Origin: Gammaproteobacteria bacterium
GTDB taxonomy: Bacteria > Pseudomonadota > Gammaproteobacteria > Xanthomonadales > SZUA-5
DNA: 41,450 nt
Assembly (NCBI GenBank): GCA_030430155.1
Contig: JAUIFV010000021.1
Location: 1 to 41,450, forward strand
Direction: 5' to 3'
Shown: positions 3,329 through 22,383 of the stretch, piece by piece
Position numbering within the stretch: position 1 is the first letter of the stretch
How the letters are laid out: the number at the start of each line of letters is the position of its first letter
Translations under genes and position numbers: made by a program
The notes under the pieces: model-generated
What the model was told of the DNA's origin: nothing
Database searches by the model: none
The model's input: the letters and a program-made list of their open reading frames with translations, nothing else

Positions 3329-3888
3329 TACGCCCCCGCGTCAGGTTCATGCACTGTAGCGCAATGTGACTCGATTGCGTCGATCGACAAGGAGTACACC
3401 CAAAGCGCGCAGTCATCCTCGGTCGCGGGCTGCAGATAGCGGTCGGCAAAACCCAGTTTCTCCAGCAGTCGGATCGACCGCGCGTTGTCCGGCTGGACGA
3501 TCGCCAGGATCCGTGGCAGCTGTCGCTGGCTTGCCTCAGCGACGATCGCAGCGGCCGCTTCCAGCGCATAGCCGTGGCCGGCGAAGGGCGCCAAGAGCGC
3601 ATAGCCCAGATCGAAATCCGGCAGGCTGTCGCGTTTGACCAAGCCACAGATACCCATCGGCGCGCCATCGTCCCGACGCTCGCACAGGTACATGCCGAAG
3701 CCGTGCTCAGCGTAGCTACGCAAGATGCCGCGCTGCAGGTAATCCACCGCCTGCGCTTCGCTGCGCACCTCGCGGTCGCCGACAAAGCGCAGGAAACCGG
3801 GATCGTTGAGCAGGGCCAGCATGAAGGCGCCATCGCTGGGCTGCAGGCGGCGCAGGTGCATTCGTTCAGTGCTCAGGACGATGGACAA
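3328..3888 (-). CDS. GNAT family N-acetyltransferase (RimJ/RimL-like)
   Basis: A 186-aa protein with the layout of RimJ/RimL-type acetyltransferases: LSTERMHLRRLQPSDG at the N-terminus, a GICGLVKRD beta4 strand, DFDLGYALLAPFAGHGYALEA as motif A with the acetyl-CoA loop (here GHGYA), and PDNARSIRLLEKLGF as motif B. It should transfer an acetyl group from acetyl-CoA to an amine; the substrate is unknown. The start is taken as TTG at 3888 because the alternative ATG at 3861 would remove the conserved ST-E-R strand. The stop overlaps the start of the cupredoxin-like gene. Confidence 0.85.
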   Translation of the reverse strand: MSIVLSTERMHLRRLQPSDGAFMLALLNDPGFLRFVGDREVRSEAQAVDYLQRGILRSYAEHGFGMYLCERRDDGAPMGICGLVKRDSLPDFDLGYALLAPFAGHGYALEAAAAIVAEASQRQLPRILAIVQPDNARSIRLLEKLGFADRYLQPATEDDCALWVYSLSIDAIESHCATVHEPDAGA

Positions 3889-4050
3889 GCTCGTTGCTCA
3901 CTGGCCACTCCGCCCGACATCTTACGAGAGCGAATCCGCATCAGGCGCAACTCCCGGCCATTCTTGGCGTAAGCCGATCAACCCCTTTGCGCATACGCCG
4001 CCGTTGTGACTAGCACCCCGGTCGACAGGCCGCCTACAGCGAGGAAGACG

Positions 4051-17100: not shown

Positions 17101-17934
17101 TTAGGGCACCCAGATACAGCTCGGCGACCGCTGGGCAATCTCATCGTGTACTGTGATTCCGCCGCGCCATCTCCCATTGACCTTGTACCTATACCCGAGC
17201 CCACGGATTCTCTGAGCGTACCTTGCGCGAATGAGAATGTCCTTTGGGTTGACGTGCACACTTGTGACGTGTCCGACGCAGTAGGTGCTCGTCGCGATTG
17301 GAGTCAAGATAGCCGAGCAAAGGATGTCCGTAATCTGTAGAGGGATGTGGTTCTCGCTGTGCCCGAAGGTTGGCATATCGACAAGGTTTGCATAGGGGTC
17401 GCCACTGATGCGGAACTTCTGCGTAAAGATGGAGTGCGAAACCGAGGAATTGAGTGCAGGGGTTCGATGATCAGCGATCATCAATCCCCTACTACCGGAG
17501 TCCTGGAGAAACCGGTTGAAGCCCTCGCACAGGGCTTGCATTGAGGATGTGTAGACAGCTTGACCTTTGAACATCAAGCCAGGCTTCTTGATGTAGCAAC
17601 GCGAAAGGATCTTTCCGTCATTTCCCTCAACCAAATCGAGCATCTTGTCGATGAACCCAAACACTGCTCTTCGGCGGTTCCGTCGGCGCTTCCTAATCTC
17701 GCTCCGAAGGTCGGACCCCTTGATCTCTTTCTTGGCGACGTCCAAGAAATGGCTGCATCCGCTTCGCAGCGCTGGATTGAATCGTGATTTCAGTGTCAGG
17801 TAGTCTCGCGTAAGCGAGGCTAAGTTCTGTTGCGGAACTATCAGAGCAGCCAGAACCAGGGTAGGTTGAACCGGTGAGTCCGGACCTGGCAGAGTGCCAG
17901 GGCAGCCAGCCTCATCCACGTAGCAGATGTGCAT
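17101..17934 (-). CDS. DUF3800 domain-containing protein
   Basis: A 277-aa protein starting MHICYVDEAGCPG, the N-terminal strand with the conserved D-E-(S/A)-G of DUF3800. A later acidic motif (GLMIADHR) and the family's C-terminal IPLQITDILCSAI match the usual Q-x-x-D motif. DUF3800 proteins are widely associated with mobile or defence loci and are thought to be nuclease-like, but the function is unproven. Base composition is visibly less GC-rich than the flanking genes, a sign of transfer. GGGGG lies just before the ATG, and an elaborate structured leader lies directly upstream on the same strand. It is the last gene of the minus-strand island and is separated from the HamA-like remnant by that leader. 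Confidence 0.85.
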   Translation of the reverse strand: MHICYVDEAGCPGTLPGPDSPVQPTLVLAALIVPQQNLASLTRDYLTLKSRFNPALRSGCSHFLDVAKKEIKGSDLRSEIRKRRRNRRRAVFGFIDKMLDLVEGNDGKILSRCYIKKPGLMFKGQAVYTSSMQALCEGFNRFLQDSGSRGLMIADHRTPALNSSVSHSIFTQKFRISGDPYANLVDMPTFGHSENHIPLQITDILCSAILTPIATSTYCVGHVTSVHVNPKDILIRARYAQRIRGLGYRYKVNGRWRGGITVHDEIAQRSPSCIWVP

Positions 17935-17950
17935 CAGACCCCCGAAACAA

Positions 17951-18050
17951 CTAAGGCCGCTTGCGCGGCCTTAGGAATTGTCGCCCGGAGTTGCTCCGGT
18001 TCGACGGATGACAATTTGTCTCCGGGCATGATGATAGGCGGATTCCGCCA
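17951..18050 (-). ncRNA. Structured leader RNA upstream of the DUF3800 gene (candidate DUF3800-type motif)
   Basis: Read 5' to 3' on the minus strand. First a small hairpin (GGCGG-AAT-CCGCC, 18037-18049). Then GCCCGGAG (18027-18020), AATTGTC (18016-18010), a hairpin CCGGAG-CAA-CTCCGG (17999-17985) whose 3' side lies within CTCCGGGC (17990-17983), then GACAATT (17982-17976). GCCCGGAG/CTCCGGGC and AATTGTC/GACAATT pair in the interleaved order A-B-A'-B', so a pseudoknot or two exclusive folds are possible. Last is a perfect 10-bp helix CTAAGGCCGC/GCGGCCTTAG with a GCAA (GNRA) loop at 17974-17951, followed by TTGTTT. The GNRA loop exists only on the minus strand. I recall that candidate RNAs named DUF3800 motifs have been reported upstream of DUF3800 genes; this matches in position. 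Which motif it is cannot be told by eye. Confidence 0.65.
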
Positions 18051-18116
18051 TGTCAACACCTATTGACAGACATTCATCTTCCAGTCAGCCCGAACATAGC
18101 GTTGATTCATCCAGAG

Positions 18117-18770
18117 CTAGTTGTTCTCCAACTGCACTGCCAACTCGGCATCTGCATCGATGCCCGTCTCGAGCAACCGCGTCGCGATAAAGAGAACCGC
18201 ATGGCGACCAGGACGTCCACCGTCACGGTCAAGAGCGTCGGCGGCATTATTGACCACTGCTTGCGTTAGCTTCACTCAGCTCTTGGACTCGCCCTTCAGG
18301 AGTGCAGCCAGTGTGCCGCTGGAGTCAACGCGAACGCCGACGACGTCGTCACCGCGAAGGGCCATGTTGCGGCCATCCTTCCAACGGCGGCGGCGAACCG
18401 GGACCGTGAAGCCAAGAGTCTGCTCGGCAACCTCCGTGGCGAGCACGTCGCCGAAGTCGCCCGAACGAGCGGCCTTCGTCTTCGGCGGCAACTCGCGGAG
18501 GATCTTTGCGGTTGCAGTGGCTCCAAGATCAGCCACTCGCTGCGCAGCAATCTCAGGCGATACGTAATGGGTGCGAACAAGCGCACGGACATCATTGAAG
18601 ACGGAGGTGCGAACGCCCGCCTGTTCGGTCATGACGTTCAGCGGATGCTTGCCGACCGAAGAGCTGTTTATGGAAAGCCACCGCTTAAGCACGTGCAGCG
18701 GTGGCGATGGCTTCTTCGCAGGCGGCGACGACCGGACCTTCTTGGCCTTGTTCGTGGATGTCGTCGTCAC
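18117..18770 (-). pseudogene. HamA-like (DUF1837) nuclease gene, broken by an internal TGA and 3' truncated
   Basis: From a GTG whose last bases overlap the stop of the nuclease gene (GTGA), the frame gives 164 residues. A helical N-terminal part (HYVSPEIAAQRVADLGATATAKI) precedes a PD-(D/E)xK-like core: RSGDFGDVLATEVAE, VPVRRRRWKDGRNMALRGDD (D141, D142) and LKGESKS (E161-x-K163). TGA follows at 18278-18276, but the same frame stays open for 52 more codons that look genuine: KLTQAVVNNAADALDRDGG and AVLFIATRLLETG, ending at TAG 18117. Relatives have Arg after E-x-KS, so CGA to TGA is the likely lesion. The last ~90 residues expected of this family (ending near an anti-phage HamA C-terminal domain) are missing; the DUF3800 unit begins there. 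HamA is the nuclease of Hachiman defence. Here it would be a third component of the Argonaute operon, probably inactive. Confidence 0.7.
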
Positions 18771-20020
18771 GGCGTGCCACCCCCATCTGGCGCACTTGCC
18801 GGTCCTACAGGCGCTGACTCCATCTTCGAAGGGCGGCTGACGACGACCACTCCAGCGACGCGATCGAGCTTTTCCAGGCCCTGGATGAGCGTGGCGTGCT
18901 CTTCGGTGCGCGCGGCATCATCCCAGACGAACGCGACCATTCGGTCGTATTGGCTGCCCTGCGGGAAGTACATCGCGGCGTCCTGTGCGAGCTCCCGCTG
19001 GATCTCCTGGAGGCTCTTTTTGGCCCGCGCGAACTTCGCCTCGATGATGAGCTTCAGCGACGGGATGACGAGGTCTGCACGCGGCTGCGAGAAGCCGACT
19101 TTGGTCGAGTAGCCTTCGCTCTCGAGGTCTGGGAACAGCGGGGCGAGGACGGCCCAGAGCATATTTTGTACGTGGTACTCGTGATCGACGTGCCACATGC
19201 GAGCTTGGCTCGTTTTCGTCCGGGGCGTCTCCTCCCATGTCCAATCGCGGAGCGAGCGCTGGACGTTGCGGAGCAGCGCGAGCACGTCGTTGACCGTCAT
19301 CACGTCGGTGCGGATGGTTCGCACTACGCTGACCTTCACCCGCGACAAGGCAGCAAGCAGGAACGTCGCCCCTATCTGGTCCACGTGGGCGTGGTGCTCA
19401 AGGACCGCCGCCGTGACCGCTCGGTGGTCCTTCGCAGTGAGGACCTCGGTGTCCGACGCCACGGCGACTCTCGTCACGCAGCAGGCTTCTGACAGCTCCG
19501 GCGGTTGAGTGCGCTGCGCTCCCAAGAGCTGCGCGGCAACGTGGAGCTGGGCGCGCTCCCAGGTTTCCAGATGCTTGTCGAACTTGTCGAGGACCGATGC
19601 GAGCCAGGTACGCATCGCGGCCTGGCGGCTGGAGTCGGCCGAACGCAGGAGGGCCGACACCACTGCGAGGATTGCCGGAGGGTCGGCCGCAAGCCCGACC
19701 GCGGCACCGTCGACCTCGATGGCAGCTCCCAGGGCCCAATCGATTCCTTCGTTGAACGCGACCGTCGGATCGTCGTCGGGGGTTTTCATCGCGCTCGCCA
19801 ACGCCAGCGCGGTCACCGCTTGATACGAGCGCGGCGCGCCTCCTTGCTTCATCTGGTGCCATTGAGCGACGGTGCCCTGGGTGAGGCTGTGGGCGTCCGC
19901 TCCCCACATGTTCGGCAATAGCCAGCTGACGACGAGGCGATCGAGGACCGAACCACCTCGCAACTTGTCGACCTCGCGGCTTAGCACAGCCTCCGCGTCC
20001 CCGAGGAGCATGTCCCCCAT
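18767..20020 (-). CDS. PD-(D/E)xK nuclease, DpnII/MboI-like, Argonaute-associated
   Basis: A 417-aa protein. The first ~260 residues are mostly helical and not recognised. The C-terminal ~150 residues form a restriction-endonuclease-like core: E281 in DHEYHVQNMLWAVL, D316 in QPRADLVIP, and E327-A-K329 in LKLIIEAKFAR. Then come a helix (QEIQRELAQDAAMYF) and a strand VAFVWDDAARTEE, the arrangement of the DpnII/MboI-type PD-(D/E)xK family also found on defence effectors. The start is ATG 20020, five bases after the Argonaute stop; ATG 20011, which has GGGGGAC in front of it, is the alternative. The stop overlaps the next gene (GTGA). The gene arrangement implies a DNA-cutting effector controlled by the Argonaute; that is inference. 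The frame extends upstream into the Argonaute gene, but that part is a shadow. Confidence 0.8.
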   Translation of the reverse strand: MGDMLLGDAEAVLSREVDKLRGGSVLDRLVVSWLLPNMWGADAHSLTQGTVAQWHQMKQGGAPRSYQAVTALALASAMKTPDDDPTVAFNEGIDWALGAAIEVDGAAVGLAADPPAILAVVSALLRSADSSRQAAMRTWLASVLDKFDKHLETWERAQLHVAAQLLGAQRTQPPELSEACCVTRVAVASDTEVLTAKDHRAVTAAVLEHHAHVDQIGATFLLAALSRVKVSVVRTIRTDVMTVNDVLALLRNVQRSLRDWTWEETPRTKTSQARMWHVDHEYHVQNMLWAVLAPLFPDLESEGYSTKVGFSQPRADLVIPSLKLIIEAKFARAKKSLQEIQRELAQDAAMYFPQGSQYDRMVAFVWDDAARTEEHATLIQGLEKLDRVAGVVVVSRPSKMESAPVGPASAPDGGGTP

Positions 20021-20025
20021 GCCGC

Positions 20026-22383
20026 TCACAAGAACCACCTCGTCGTGCCGATCTGCCCGTAGAGGACGTCCGGGTTCCACCGCGTCGTCGTTCCCAGCCG
20101 CCCCATGTATCGGGCGATGAGCTGCGAGTAGCTGACCGTCACCGGCATTGAGGCAGGTTGGAAGCCGCGCCACGAATGACTCGCGAACAGCATCACCTGC
20201 TGTCCAAGGTACCGCAGATCACGGAACGTGGATGCGCGGTGCAGATGCAGCCGCAGAGGAACCGGAGCACCATCGGTGGGGCGCTTCAACTCCTTGGCGC
20301 CGGTCGCGCCGACGAGCATGTCCCTGTCAGAGAGCGCCACCATGAGCCCGCGCTCGGGCACGAACACGCCCTTCACCTTGCCGCTTTGGCCGACAGGAAC
20401 ACCATGCGCGTTCCGGTTGAAGAGCTGCAGGTTCGTATCGCCCGCGACGTGAAGGAACGCGAACTCTAGTTGGAAGTCGGAGAGTTCCTCCGCCAGGCGA
20501 GTAACTGCCCGCGCCTCGTTGTCTCGCAGCGGCTTGAACGCATGGAAGATGAGGCGAACGCGCTCGCCCTTCTGCCAGTTCCGCTCCTTCCTGACGCGCT
20601 CGAGCGAAAACCGCAACGAGGAGAGCATCTCGTCCGAGTATTCGTCGAAGGCAACCGCCTTGGAGACAGTGTGGAGGAAGTACGACCCATCCCCGCTGAA
20701 GACGGTTGTGAAACCGACAAGTCTTGCGCCCTGGGACAGTCGGCTCGTCCGAACCCGCGAGCTGGAGATTCCGACGACGAGCTCATGCGTCGTCGTCGGG
20801 TCGGCACGCAAGAGCCACGGAATTCCCCCGAGCTTCGCGTACGTCGCGAGACTCATGTTGCTAAGCGTGTACGCGAGCTGTTTTTGGTTGGGGGTCCGGG
20901 AAGTCTCGAAGCGGAATTGCTGGATCGAGATTTGCTGCGTGAGAAAAAACGCCTTTGTCACGAGATACGGGTTGTCGTCACCGCGCAACTGATGCGTGCG
21001 GTCCTCGACCTGCACAAAAGCGAGGTCCCATTCATGTCCGTTGTCGCGCGCGGATTGGAGCGCCCGCTGCGAAGCCTCGTGGTAAGCGGCGGAAGTCCCG
21101 TTGCGCGCGGTGAAGGGCACCGGCTGGCAGTCATCGAAGCCGTACGTGCGCAGAAATCCCCGCGAAAAGACGCTGTTCGGAATGCCGTGCAGGAACTTGT
21201 ACATCAACTGCTCGGCGACTCCCTGCTGCGACGCTTGGCAGATAAGGCAGACGCGCGGTGTGCGGGGGATCGGGGCAGAGCGGCTATAGGGACCGAACTC
21301 GGCGATACCGTGACTAGAAGATCGGTGCGTTTTGCGTCCTGCAGCATCGAAAACGAAGACGGCAGCCTCAGCTCGGCGCACGGTGGACGTCCCGTTCAGC
21401 CACTGGGTGGGATTCACGAAACGTCCAACCGTTGCATGCACTCCTGGTGCGATCTTGAGCGGCTCCTTCCGAAGAATCTCGCACGCACTATCAAGCCGTT
21501 TGACCCATGATGAGCCCTCATGGACGGCGGCGGCATTGTCTTTCATGTCGGTCTTCGCGCTGAGCCAACGGCCACGTCCGAGCGCGTACTCGAGCAGGCG
21601 GCCAATGTTCGCCTTCGAGGCCTCATTGTAGAGCTTGTCGGCATCGACCGCGAACGTGCTGCCGTCGTCCGCCTCGACGGTCGCCGTACCGCGGGTTACC
21701 CCACGAAGGACCCCTCGAAGACGCAGCTCGGGTAGGACTCGCTCATCCGGGATCGCTTCGAGTCTTCCAGCGTATGCGCCCCGAAGGTCAACTCCCCATG
21801 TTGCCAACTCGCCCACCGACGCACTGATCCTCTGCTGGACGGACACCCCGAGCGCGACGGCGGTAACCGTCAATGCGTCGCGGGACGCATTAGGTGGACG
21901 AAACGCTTGTGCCCAGAAGCTGTACGCAACGCGCGCGTCAATTGCGCGCACGACCTTTGGGTGAGTGCTCTCCAAGGCCCATCGCTCACCCGGTCCGACG
22001 AAGTCGCTTGATGCGGTCGAAAGCACTTGAACCGGTTTGCCTCGAATGAGCGGTCGTCTCCGCGCAAACATTCGACGCAGGAGTGCCTCGCGCCAGAGGT
22101 TGCACGCCATACCAGGGTGGTCGCGGAGAAGCAGTGTTCTTCGCAGCTCGCTGAGACGGGGTGCGTTCTCATCGATCGCAACTGCAAGGATCTCGTCTCC
22201 CTCGGCGCGAAATACGTGCGTTGCCCGATGGCTGCGACTGAGCTCAGCGAGTCTCGAGGTTCGGGGCAATATCTCCGCAACAACCGCTGCGTCCCCAAAA
22301 TCGAGGACGGCGGCGTTAATAAAGAGGCCCTTTCCGGCGGCATCGTCAATGGTGAAGTTCGCGCGTTGGTCAACGTCGCTCAA
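20026..22383 (-). CDS. Prokaryotic Argonaute with catalytically inactive PIWI domain (long, RsAgo-like)
   Basis: A 785-aa protein. The start is TTG 22383 with AGGGGG upstream. N-terminal and linker regions span roughly 1-370 (HPKVVRAIDARVAYSFWAQAF at about 141-161, and a possible reduced PAZ around 220-260). The MID domain (about 375-525) carries the guide 5'-end pocket motif NPYLVTK (Y473, K477) and Q489/Q490, and it ends in the hallmark YAKLGGIPWLL (K517). The PIWI domain (530-785) has the expected strands, but VVGISSSR has Ser540 where active enzymes have the first Asp, and IFHAFKPLRDNE lacks the Asp after the His. It ends with the family-typical PVTVSYSQLIARYMGRL and WNPDVLYGQIGTTRWFL. 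Length and inactivity fit long-B Argonautes. It should bind guide and target without cutting, and it leads a tight operon with a nuclease and a HamA-like gene. Confidence 0.88.
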   Translation of the reverse strand: MSDVDQRANFTIDDAAGKGLFINAAVLDFGDAAVVAEILPRTSRLAELSRSHRATHVFRAEGDEILAVAIDENAPRLSELRRTLLLRDHPGMACNLWREALLRRMFARRRPLIRGKPVQVLSTASSDFVGPGERWALESTHPKVVRAIDARVAYSFWAQAFRPPNASRDALTVTAVALGVSVQQRISASVGELATWGVDLRGAYAGRLEAIPDERVLPELRLRGVLRGVTRGTATVEADDGSTFAVDADKLYNEASKANIGRLLEYALGRGRWLSAKTDMKDNAAAVHEGSSWVKRLDSACEILRKEPLKIAPGVHATVGRFVNPTQWLNGTSTVRRAEAAVFVFDAAGRKTHRSSSHGIAEFGPYSRSAPIPRTPRVCLICQASQQGVAEQLMYKFLHGIPNSVFSRGFLRTYGFDDCQPVPFTARNGTSAAYHEASQRALQSARDNGHEWDLAFVQVEDRTHQLRGDDNPYLVTKAFFLTQQISIQQFRFETSRTPNQKQLAYTLSNMSLATYAKLGGIPWLLRADPTTTHELVVGISSSRVRTSRLSQGARLVGFTTVFSGDGSYFLHTVSKAVAFDEYSDEMLSSLRFSLERVRKERNWQKGERVRLIFHAFKPLRDNEARAVTRLAEELSDFQLEFAFLHVAGDTNLQLFNRNAHGVPVGQSGKVKGVFVPERGLMVALSDRDMLVGATGAKELKRPTDGAPVPLRLHLHRASTFRDLRYLGQQVMLFASHSWRGFQPASMPVTVSYSQLIARYMGRLGTTTRWNPDVLYGQIGTTRWFL

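What the first reader, a model, noticed from the sequence alone, without database searches (positions are those of the whole stretch)
17951..18050. Pseudoknot-capable leader RNA with GNRA-loop helix upstream of a DUF3800 gene
On the DUF3800 strand, GCCCGGAG and AATTGTC are followed by CTCCGGGC and GACAATT in interleaved order, so both helices can form only as a pseudoknot or alternately. CTCCGG also has a local partner CCGGAG, giving a third, competing fold. A perfect 10-bp helix with a GCAA loop lies 22 bases before the ATG and is followed by TTGTTT. Competing folds next to a terminator-like stem look like a switch or a recombination/RNA-substrate site rather than chance. Its place upstream of DUF3800 agrees with published DUF3800 RNA candidates as I remember them.
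Basis: partly seen in the sequence, partly recalled or inferred. Interest (0 to 1): 0.78.

Follow-up and report, generated by a model that had tools for sequence, protein, structure and literature searches.

The report
Small RNA paired with DUF3800 nuclease
Next to a predicted nuclease gene of unknown function lies a small, apparently separately transcribed RNA that matches no known RNA family searched and is kept together with the nuclease in very different bacteria; the two probably form an RNA-controlled toxin or defence module.

Summary
The minus strand carries what looks like a small RNA gene: a sigma70-like promoter (18056-18028), a predicted transcript of about 77 nt (18021-17945) with three hairpins, the last also a terminator, then the DUF3800 gene (17934-17101).

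In 31 aligned copies the P1/P2 hairpin and P3 stem show strong compensatory change (98.7% of cells paired, 12 of 15 pairs changed on both sides). No Rfam family matches, although some other DUF3800 genes carry Rfam DUF3800-V to -IX RNAs.

A promoter-like sequence precedes the RNA, and in two loci it lies on the strand opposite the gene, so it is not just a leader. RNA and protein co-diverge (r 0.71). The protein model resembles RNase HII (Z 10.7).

Best reading: a two-part ribonucleoprotein module, most likely an RNA antitoxin restraining an RNase-H-fold toxin, working like type III toxin-antitoxin or AbiF systems. The conserved RNA is well supported; the antitoxin function is inference.

The parts
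18028..18056 (-). sigma70-like promoter of the small RNA: TTGACA (18056-18051), 17-nt spacer, CATCAT (18033-18028)
   Evidence: consensus scan, 10 of 12 matches; TTGAC lies 47-59 nt before P1 in 21 of 31 copies, shuffles mean 0.53 for the 42-62 nt window counted
17945..18021 (-). predicted small RNA, about 77 nt, starting at the AG 6 nt after the -10 box
   Evidence: AG 5-8 nt after the -10 in 19 of 21 copies with TTGAC, shuffles mean 5.3; fold z -6.41; model R1 match 68.7 bits at 18030-17941, the window being part of the model. No transcript data.
18010..18020 (-). P0, small 5' hairpin GACA-AAT-TGTC; sequence variable, weakest part of the structure
   Evidence: mean z of the 22 nt before P1 is -1.3 over 31 copies, 27 of 31 fold below zero
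17980..18005 (-). P1/P2 hairpin: P1 GTCG 18005-18002 with CGAC 17983-17980; AA bulge; P2 CCGGAG 17999-17994 with CTCCGG 17990-17985
   Evidence: 97.3% of cells paired, 4 of 6 counted pairs with changes on both sides, 31 sequences
17975..17979 (-). linker AATTC (consensus RRAUC before the invariant C of P3): two bases can extend P3 by pairing with UU after it, three form a bulge
   Evidence: extension pairs 88.5% paired, both with changes on both sides; column counts
17951..17974 (-). P3, terminator stem CTAAGGCCGC-GCAA-GCGGCCTTAG
   Evidence: terminator scan; 99.6% of cells paired, 8 of 9 pairs with changes on both sides
17945..17950 (-). U-rich tail TTGTTT, short and interrupted, so read-through into the gene is likely (inference)
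   Evidence: sequence
17939..17943 (-). Shine-Dalgarno-like GGGGG before the DUF3800 ATG
   Evidence: sequence
17101..17934 (-). DUF3800 protein, 277 aa, RNase-H-fold predicted nuclease; D7, E8, E70, D155, D203 invariant in the 23 aligned proteins of A4
   Evidence: Pfam PF12686 E 1.5e-14; AlphaFold2 pLDDT 92.0; RNase HII 1eke_B Z 10.7, rmsd 3.6, 172 aligned; conservation

Best explanation
A two-part ribonucleoprotein module. Shown by comparison: a conserved structured RNA with a promoter-like sequence of its own, a P1/P2 hairpin with a conserved linker and a P3 terminator stem, kept next to one clade of DUF3800 proteins and co-diverging with it. Inferred: the RNA (about 77 nt, made in excess because most transcription stops at P3) binds the RNase-HII-like DUF3800 protein through P1/P2, the RRAUCC linker and P3 and holds the nuclease in check; occasional read-through past the weak terminator makes the protein mRNA; when transcription is shut down or the locus is lost, for example by phage takeover or plasmid loss, the RNA decays first and the nuclease is freed. 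It would thus work like a type III toxin-antitoxin or AbiF-type module with an RNase-H-fold toxin.
For: RNA core: 98.7% of 465 cells paired against 87.6% in shuffles and at most 47.8% when slid, 12 of 15 pairs with changes on both sides. A model from 15 copies finds 17 of 17 held-out RNA loci at 43.0 bits or more, while the other 7 sources given stay under 20 bits. The RNA lies beside the gene in 31 of the 37 loci found through the protein, window included (30 of these 31 were in the model used for this count). In the same 369 class genomes the protein search and the RNA search hit the same 2 genomes and no other (both copies were in the RNA model). Promoter-like TTGAC at a fixed distance in 21 of 31 copies. 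Divergent orientation in L013 and L026. Co-divergence r 0.71 over 22 loci, 0 of 9999 permutations as high. RNase-HII-like fold with invariant acidic residues. No constant third gene: 30 neighbour proteins from 18 loci share no Pfam family that recurs around the module, and 979 flanking reading frames from 31 loci give only 3 matching pairs, each between two loci. Found on plasmids and IMG/VR contigs. An RNA copy remains where the protein carries a stop (L023) or is missing (L032), as an antitoxin might. Precedent: RCd22 RNA neutralises AbiF in cis and in trans and sits before a terminator and the toxin gene (PMC12373285, abstract, sections 7 and 9 and passages seen).
Against: No experiment shows transcription, toxicity, nuclease activity or RNA binding. 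Single RNA copy per locus and no conserved pseudoknot found, unlike ToxIN. L018, L036 and L037 have a protein relative (35-41% identity) without a good match to this RNA. L021 and L022 are truncated proteins without the RNA. In L024 both RNA and protein are damaged. The divergent arrangement is probably one event, both loci being rhizobial by record title. Ten of 31 copies lack an exact TTGAC. The distance correlation also follows from plain shared descent. PADLOC has no model matching this protein.
Confidence: 0.5

Rival explanations
1. The RNA is a required cofactor or scaffold that activates or directs the nuclease, as in RNA-guided effectors, rather than an inhibitor.
For: RNase-H-fold nuclease paired with a dedicated RNA; DUF3800 occurs as an accessory in some CRISPR loci, where authors suggest a part in interference or in crRNA biogenesis or degradation (PMC10910872 and PMC12669027, passages seen).
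Against: No obvious free guide-like segment: the variable 5' part mostly forms hairpin P0 and is similar between close copies such as L030/L031, L028/L034 and L011/L014. The 20 nt at 18027-18008, which include the start of the predicted RNA, have no second site in the own genome with up to 3 mismatches. The protein is small (277 aa).
Confidence: 0.2
2. Autoregulation: the protein binds its own leader RNA to tune read-through of the P3 terminator; the RNA has no further role.
For: RNA and gene are in line in 29 of 31 loci with both.
Against: L013 and L026 have the RNA divergent from the gene; an RNA without the gene exists in L032; conserved P1/P2 and linker go beyond what a terminator needs.
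Confidence: 0.17
3. Cis-acting riboswitch or attenuator with competing folds.
For: A terminator precedes the gene and alternative pairings exist in the window; two other copies, L028 and L034, also allow an 8-bp upstream helix.
Against: The competing helices are at chance level over 31 relatives; divergent copies; the predicted start excludes most of the first arm.
Confidence: 0.05
4. Only a conserved terminator plus promoter, with no functional RNA.
For: P3 is the strongest element.
Against: P1/P2 covaries as well as P3 (97.3% paired, 4 of 6 pairs with changes on both sides), and the linker and P3 sequence are conserved beyond what termination needs.
Confidence: 0.03

Closest known systems
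Rfam DUF3800 RNA families (seen here: V RF02964, VI RF02915, VII RF02967, VIII RF03075, IX RF02968; I RF02969 named in PMC11701678)
   Same: Structured RNA of about 50-100 nt next to a DUF3800 gene; V, VII and IX also end in a run of U.
   Different: No match of our RNA to any Rfam model. In our sample V, VII, VIII and IX lie tail-to-tail with the gene (5 of 5 matches) and VI upstream; ours lies upstream in line, or divergent. The fold differs: two separate hairpins plus P0, with no closing outer helix as in VII and IX.
AbiF with RCd22 RNA (RF03085), Clostridioides difficile (PMC12373285)
   Same: SigA promoter, RNA of about 100-130 nt, Rho-independent terminator, ribosome binding site, then the effector gene; mobile context.
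   Different: Effector is an Abi_2 protein with links to Cas13 ancestors, not DUF3800; RCd22 carries two copies of its motif, ours one. RCd22 function is tested, ours is not.
Type III toxin-antitoxin systems (ToxIN, CptIN, TenpIN)
   Same: RNA, terminator and nuclease gene in one unit; found on plasmids and chromosomes.
   Different: No tandem repeats and no conserved pseudoknot found; a protein of the DUF3800 family.
RNase HII
   Same: Fold (Z 10.7 to 1eke_B) and an N-terminal DEAG stretch (VDEAGCPG here; the RNase HII counterpart is recalled, from no call).
   Different: About 12% identity over 172 residues and a dedicated RNA partner.

Membership tests
DUF3800-associated RNAs (Rfam) | matches one of the curated covariance models at its gathering score | tested here: not met
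   0 matches in the window; no DUF3800 RNA family in 17 loci that hold the RNA (which did find tRNA, RNAI and others); none at E<=10 for 351 bases of the window nor at E<=1 for 8 loci. Whether motifs II, III, IV, X and XI, recalled from the literature, are in the library was not seen.
DUF3800-associated RNAs (general kind) | conserved structured RNA adjacent to a DUF3800 gene | tested here: met
   31 of 37 protein-found loci, covariation
Type III toxin-antitoxin (ToxIN/CptIN/TenpIN) | antitoxin RNA made of tandem repeats | tested here: not met
   at most one strong model match per locus in 40 sources; the second weak match in L012 looks like an unrelated hairpin; no direct repeats of 12 or more in 3 regions
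Type III toxin-antitoxin (ToxIN/CptIN/TenpIN) | antitoxin folds as an H-type pseudoknot | tested here: inconclusive
Type III toxin-antitoxin (ToxIN/CptIN/TenpIN) | terminator between RNA and toxin gene | tested here: met
   not so in L013 and L026, where the RNA points away from the gene
Type III toxin-antitoxin (ToxIN/CptIN/TenpIN) | ToxN/AbiQ-type endoribonuclease fold | tested here: inconclusive
   Pfam gives only DUF3800 and the best structural matches are RNase H2, but absence from that list is not proof
Type III toxin-antitoxin (ToxIN/CptIN/TenpIN) | protein toxic and neutralised by the RNA | not testable with these tools
   needs experiment
DUF3800 protein family (PF12686) | Pfam score over the curated cut-off | tested here: met
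   55.3 bits against 21
RNase HII-like nucleases | RNase H fold with acidic active site | tested here: inconclusive
   fold similarity Z 10.7; D7, E8, E70, D155 and D203 invariant in 23 of 23 proteins of A4, though L031 has Ala at position 7; their superposition on the RNase HII site was not computed

The most novel reading that the evidence does not exclude
DUF3800 proteins as a whole are RNase-HII-like toxins, each subfamily held by its own co-diverging sRNA (Rfam DUF3800 families plus this one), making a large and so far unrecognised group of RNA-restrained toxin-antitoxin or anti-phage modules with RNA genes placed upstream, divergent or tail-to-tail.
Probability: 0.35. Interest if true: 0.82.

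Novelty: new member of a known kind. Interest (0 to 1): 0.62.

Why it matters
As far as I know (recalled, and a passage in PMC10910872 speaks only of putative ncRNAs), DUF3800-associated RNAs are structures without a known function. This family has unusually clear anatomy: promoter-like sequence, predicted start site, compensatory stems, terminator, two gene orders and a partner of predicted RNase-HII fold. That makes the question of what DUF3800 RNAs do directly testable with one two-plasmid toxicity assay and one pull-down, and it would give annotators a new RNA family.

Tried and rejected
Rfam: no useful hit; the only window matches at E<=10 were a CRISPR repeat model and a microRNA model on the palindromic P3, far below their cut-offs. 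Guide-like 5' end: no second site in the own genome; blastn of 120 bases of RNA and promoter in the own genome gave its own place and 14-20 nt chance matches. The window RNA in plasmids gave only chance matches of 21-37 bases at E 0.2-0.7, so even the plasmid copies known from the protein are too diverged for it. A 1001-base piece of L028 had no match in E. coli genomes, the L010 RNA none in phages, the window protein none in phages. Tandem copies: none seen. A promoter-RNA-terminator layout for DUF3800 genes in general: only 2 of 19 other DUF3800 loci had a terminator-like hairpin in the 200 nt upstream by my simple scan; of 23 such loci, L075 and L078 were not placed by the script and L084 and L089 not given to it, and several start codons chosen by it look doubtful. 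Weak model matches in 23 other phylum genomes (25 places, 22.7-30.3 bits) were taken as noise: none of the loci fetched for them held a reading frame matching profile A2 at E<=10. Pattern hit L040 has no model match and no DUF3800 match. The 115-aa reading frame after the RNA in L032, which I first took for a transposase, has no Pfam match. PHROGs and NCBIfam have no family for the protein. The structure comparison lists no toxin family beside the RNase H2 rows that I could use; this is not evidence of absence. No paper on DUF3800 function was found with the searches (open-licence PMC only; one search asked for several words at once and returned nothing). The paper that I recall as the source of the DUF3800 motifs (Weinberg et al. 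2017) is not held and is cited from memory only.

Full report
WHAT IS THERE. On the minus strand the order is: TTGACA (18056-18051), 17 nt, CATCAT (18033-18028), then GCCCGG, a predicted start at A18021, hairpin P0 (18020-18010), hairpin P1/P2 (18005-17980), linker AATTC (17979-17975), terminator stem P3 (17974-17951), TTGTTT, GGGGG, and ATG at 17934. The predicted 77-nt transcript folds into just these three hairpins at -37.7 kcal/mol, z -6.41. The gene is DUF3800.

RELATIVES. The protein was used to collect 25 loci from bacterial genomes, one from the same order (2 of 101 genomes including the own), four of ten plasmid records with a match, five IMG/VR contigs and one further genome (2 of 369 including the own). 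With the window that makes 37 loci, 35-69% protein identity, from Gamma- and Alphaproteobacteria and, by record title, Conexibacter, Myxococcales, Opitutia, Sumerlaeia and Tectomicrobia, many of them MAGs. Reading the DNA before the start codons showed one recurring element. A covariance model finds it at 44 bits or more beside the gene in 31 of the 37; 30 of these 31 were used to build it, so the test with held-out data below is the fair one. The six without: L018 (35% identity), L036 and L037 (41%; only 19-20 bits, mostly P3), L020 (cut by the contig end), L021 and L022 (N-terminal part of the protein not matched). L024, one of the 31, has lost bases in P1 and its protein match is broken into two pieces. 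A further copy, L032, was found by RNA pattern on an IMG/VR contig with no significant DUF3800 match in the 14 kb held.

STRUCTURE. Alignment A3 holds 31 copies (L032 in, L024 out) and was made by MAFFT without structure; L008 is misaligned at P1 and was counted as it stands. P1, P2 and P3: 98.7% of 465 cells form standard pairs, 12 of 15 pairs have changes on both sides, 61 cells changed on both sides against 16.4 in shuffles; slid structures pair at most 47.8%. RNAalifold independently returns the same helices plus one more P3 pair. Two bases of the linker can extend P3 by pairing with the two bases after it (88.5% paired, both with double changes), leaving a three-base bulge. The G-U cells would be A-C mismatches on the other strand, which supports the strand. 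As a test with held-out data, model R2, built from 15 copies with an automatically derived structure, found 17 of 17 remaining RNA loci at 43.0 bits or more; the 7 other sources given had nothing above 20 bits, and the other matches were mostly the palindromic P3 read on the reverse strand, up to 24.0 bits.

A SEPARATE GENE. TTGAC lies 47-59 nt before P1 in 21 of 31 copies, against a mean of 0.53 in shuffles. In L013 and L026 the whole unit, promoter-like sequence included, points away from the DUF3800 gene; both are rhizobial by title, so this may be one event. P0 is the least supported part (mean z -1.3).

LINK TO THE PROTEIN. In the same 369 genomes of the class, the protein profile (E<=1e-20) and the RNA model (E<=1e-6) hit the same two genomes, in adjacent places, and no other; both copies are in the model, and the RNA search scored only 11 candidates per genome, so the information lies in the absence of others at these thresholds. 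In 398 genomes of the phylum only the own genome scores above 31 bits. RNA and protein distances correlate (22 loci, r 0.71, 0 of 9999 permutations), which shared descent alone would also give. Thirty neighbour frames from 18 loci were scanned with Pfam; 13 of them match nothing. The named ones include an integrase (L004), an Eco57I-type methylase and a DprA-like protein (L007), an AAA_13 protein (L013), an IS1595 transposase (L026), and a terminase and an EcoRI methylase on either side (L033), besides housekeeping genes. Comparing 979 flanking reading frames of 80 aa or more from 31 loci with each other gave 3 matching pairs at E<=1e-8, each between two loci. So there is no constant third gene. 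The window's own neighbours are a pAgo, an Aga-type helical REase and a HamA-like protein.

THE PROTEIN. The AlphaFold2 model is confident (pLDDT 92.0, pTM 0.90). The best solved structures are RNase HII/H2 (1eke_B Z 10.7, rmsd 3.6, 172 aligned). D7, E8, E70, D155 and D203 are identical in 23 of 23 proteins of A4; in set A2 one copy, L031, has Ala at position 7. That these form the active site is inference. [quoted passage not shown]

KNOWN OR NEW. No Rfam model matches. A sample of 143 class genomes gave 24 DUF3800 places in 22 genomes; of the 23 loci other than the own, 6 carry a Rfam DUF3800 RNA in the stretch held (V twice, VI, VII, VIII, IX) and 17 none. In five of the six (V, V, VII, VIII, IX) the RNA lies on the other strand at the 3' side of the gene, by the reading-frame ends (L078 has a stop inside its frame; in L088 RNA and frame overlap by three bases); VI in L084 lies upstream on the same strand, next to a frame with stops. 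So the kind is known and this is a further family with its own fold and placement. I could not see whether all published motifs are in Rfam.

MECHANISM. The layout (promoter, small RNA, terminator, Shine-Dalgarno, nuclease gene) is that of AbiF/RCd22, where deletion of the RNA raised the effector transcript 17-fold and the RNA neutralised the toxin in cis and in trans (PMC12373285, abstract, sections 7 and 9, passages), and of type III toxin-antitoxin systems (PMC5086642, passages). An RNA without a whole protein in L023 and L032 is what an antitoxin could leave behind, but these are two cases and each could be plain decay; in L024 both parts are damaged. I therefore put about 0.5 on the antitoxin reading, 0.2 on a cofactor or scaffold, 0.17 on autoregulation only.

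Noticed in passing
window 18276-22383 (-): Defence-like run directly upstream: pAgo_II (20026-22383), Aga helical-REase with DpnII-MboI domain (18767-20173) and a short HamA-like protein (18276-18770) matching only the first part of HamA profiles.
   Followed up: partly
window 18037-18068 (-): Two palindromes at the RNA promoter: TGTCAA (18068-18063) with TTGACA (18056-18051), and GGCGGAATCCGCC (18049-18037) in the spacer; possibly an operator. Conservation not tested.
   Followed up: no
L071, L078, L081, L085, L088: Rfam DUF3800-IX, V, V, VII and VIII RNAs lie tail-to-tail with their DUF3800 gene on the opposite strand, so these too are likely stand-alone sRNA genes.
   Followed up: partly
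L036 and L037 about 2830-2991; L018 about 3830-3990: More distant relatives have a promoter-like, terminator-ended stretch before DUF3800 that is not this RNA but may be a diverged version; judged by eye.
   Followed up: partly
L032 12041-12129 (-): Orphan copy of the RNA with promoter-like sequence and terminator on an IMG/VR contig (with a D5_N-type primase-like frame) without a DUF3800 match: decay, or a phage-borne RNA that could neutralise the system.
   Followed up: partly
L031 4001-4843: Plasmid copy with Ala in place of Asp 7 but an intact RNA; still a DUF3800 by Pfam.
   Followed up: partly
L033 1253-5075: The RNA-DUF3800 module sits between a phage terminase gene and an EcoRI-type methylase gene on an IMG/VR contig.
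   Followed up: no
RNA core of A3 against Rfam consensus lines: Short shared strings: CGAA after a 5' strand in DUF3800-VIII, -IX and many copies of this RNA, and GAUCC in DUF3800-VII and some copies of this RNA; may be a common recognition element or chance.
   Followed up: no
L026 3780-3933, L035 2709-2983, L013 3313-3937: tRNA genes lie near the module in three loci (one base from the RNA in L026, about 120 in L035, about 450 in L013), suggesting integration at tRNA genes.
   Followed up: no
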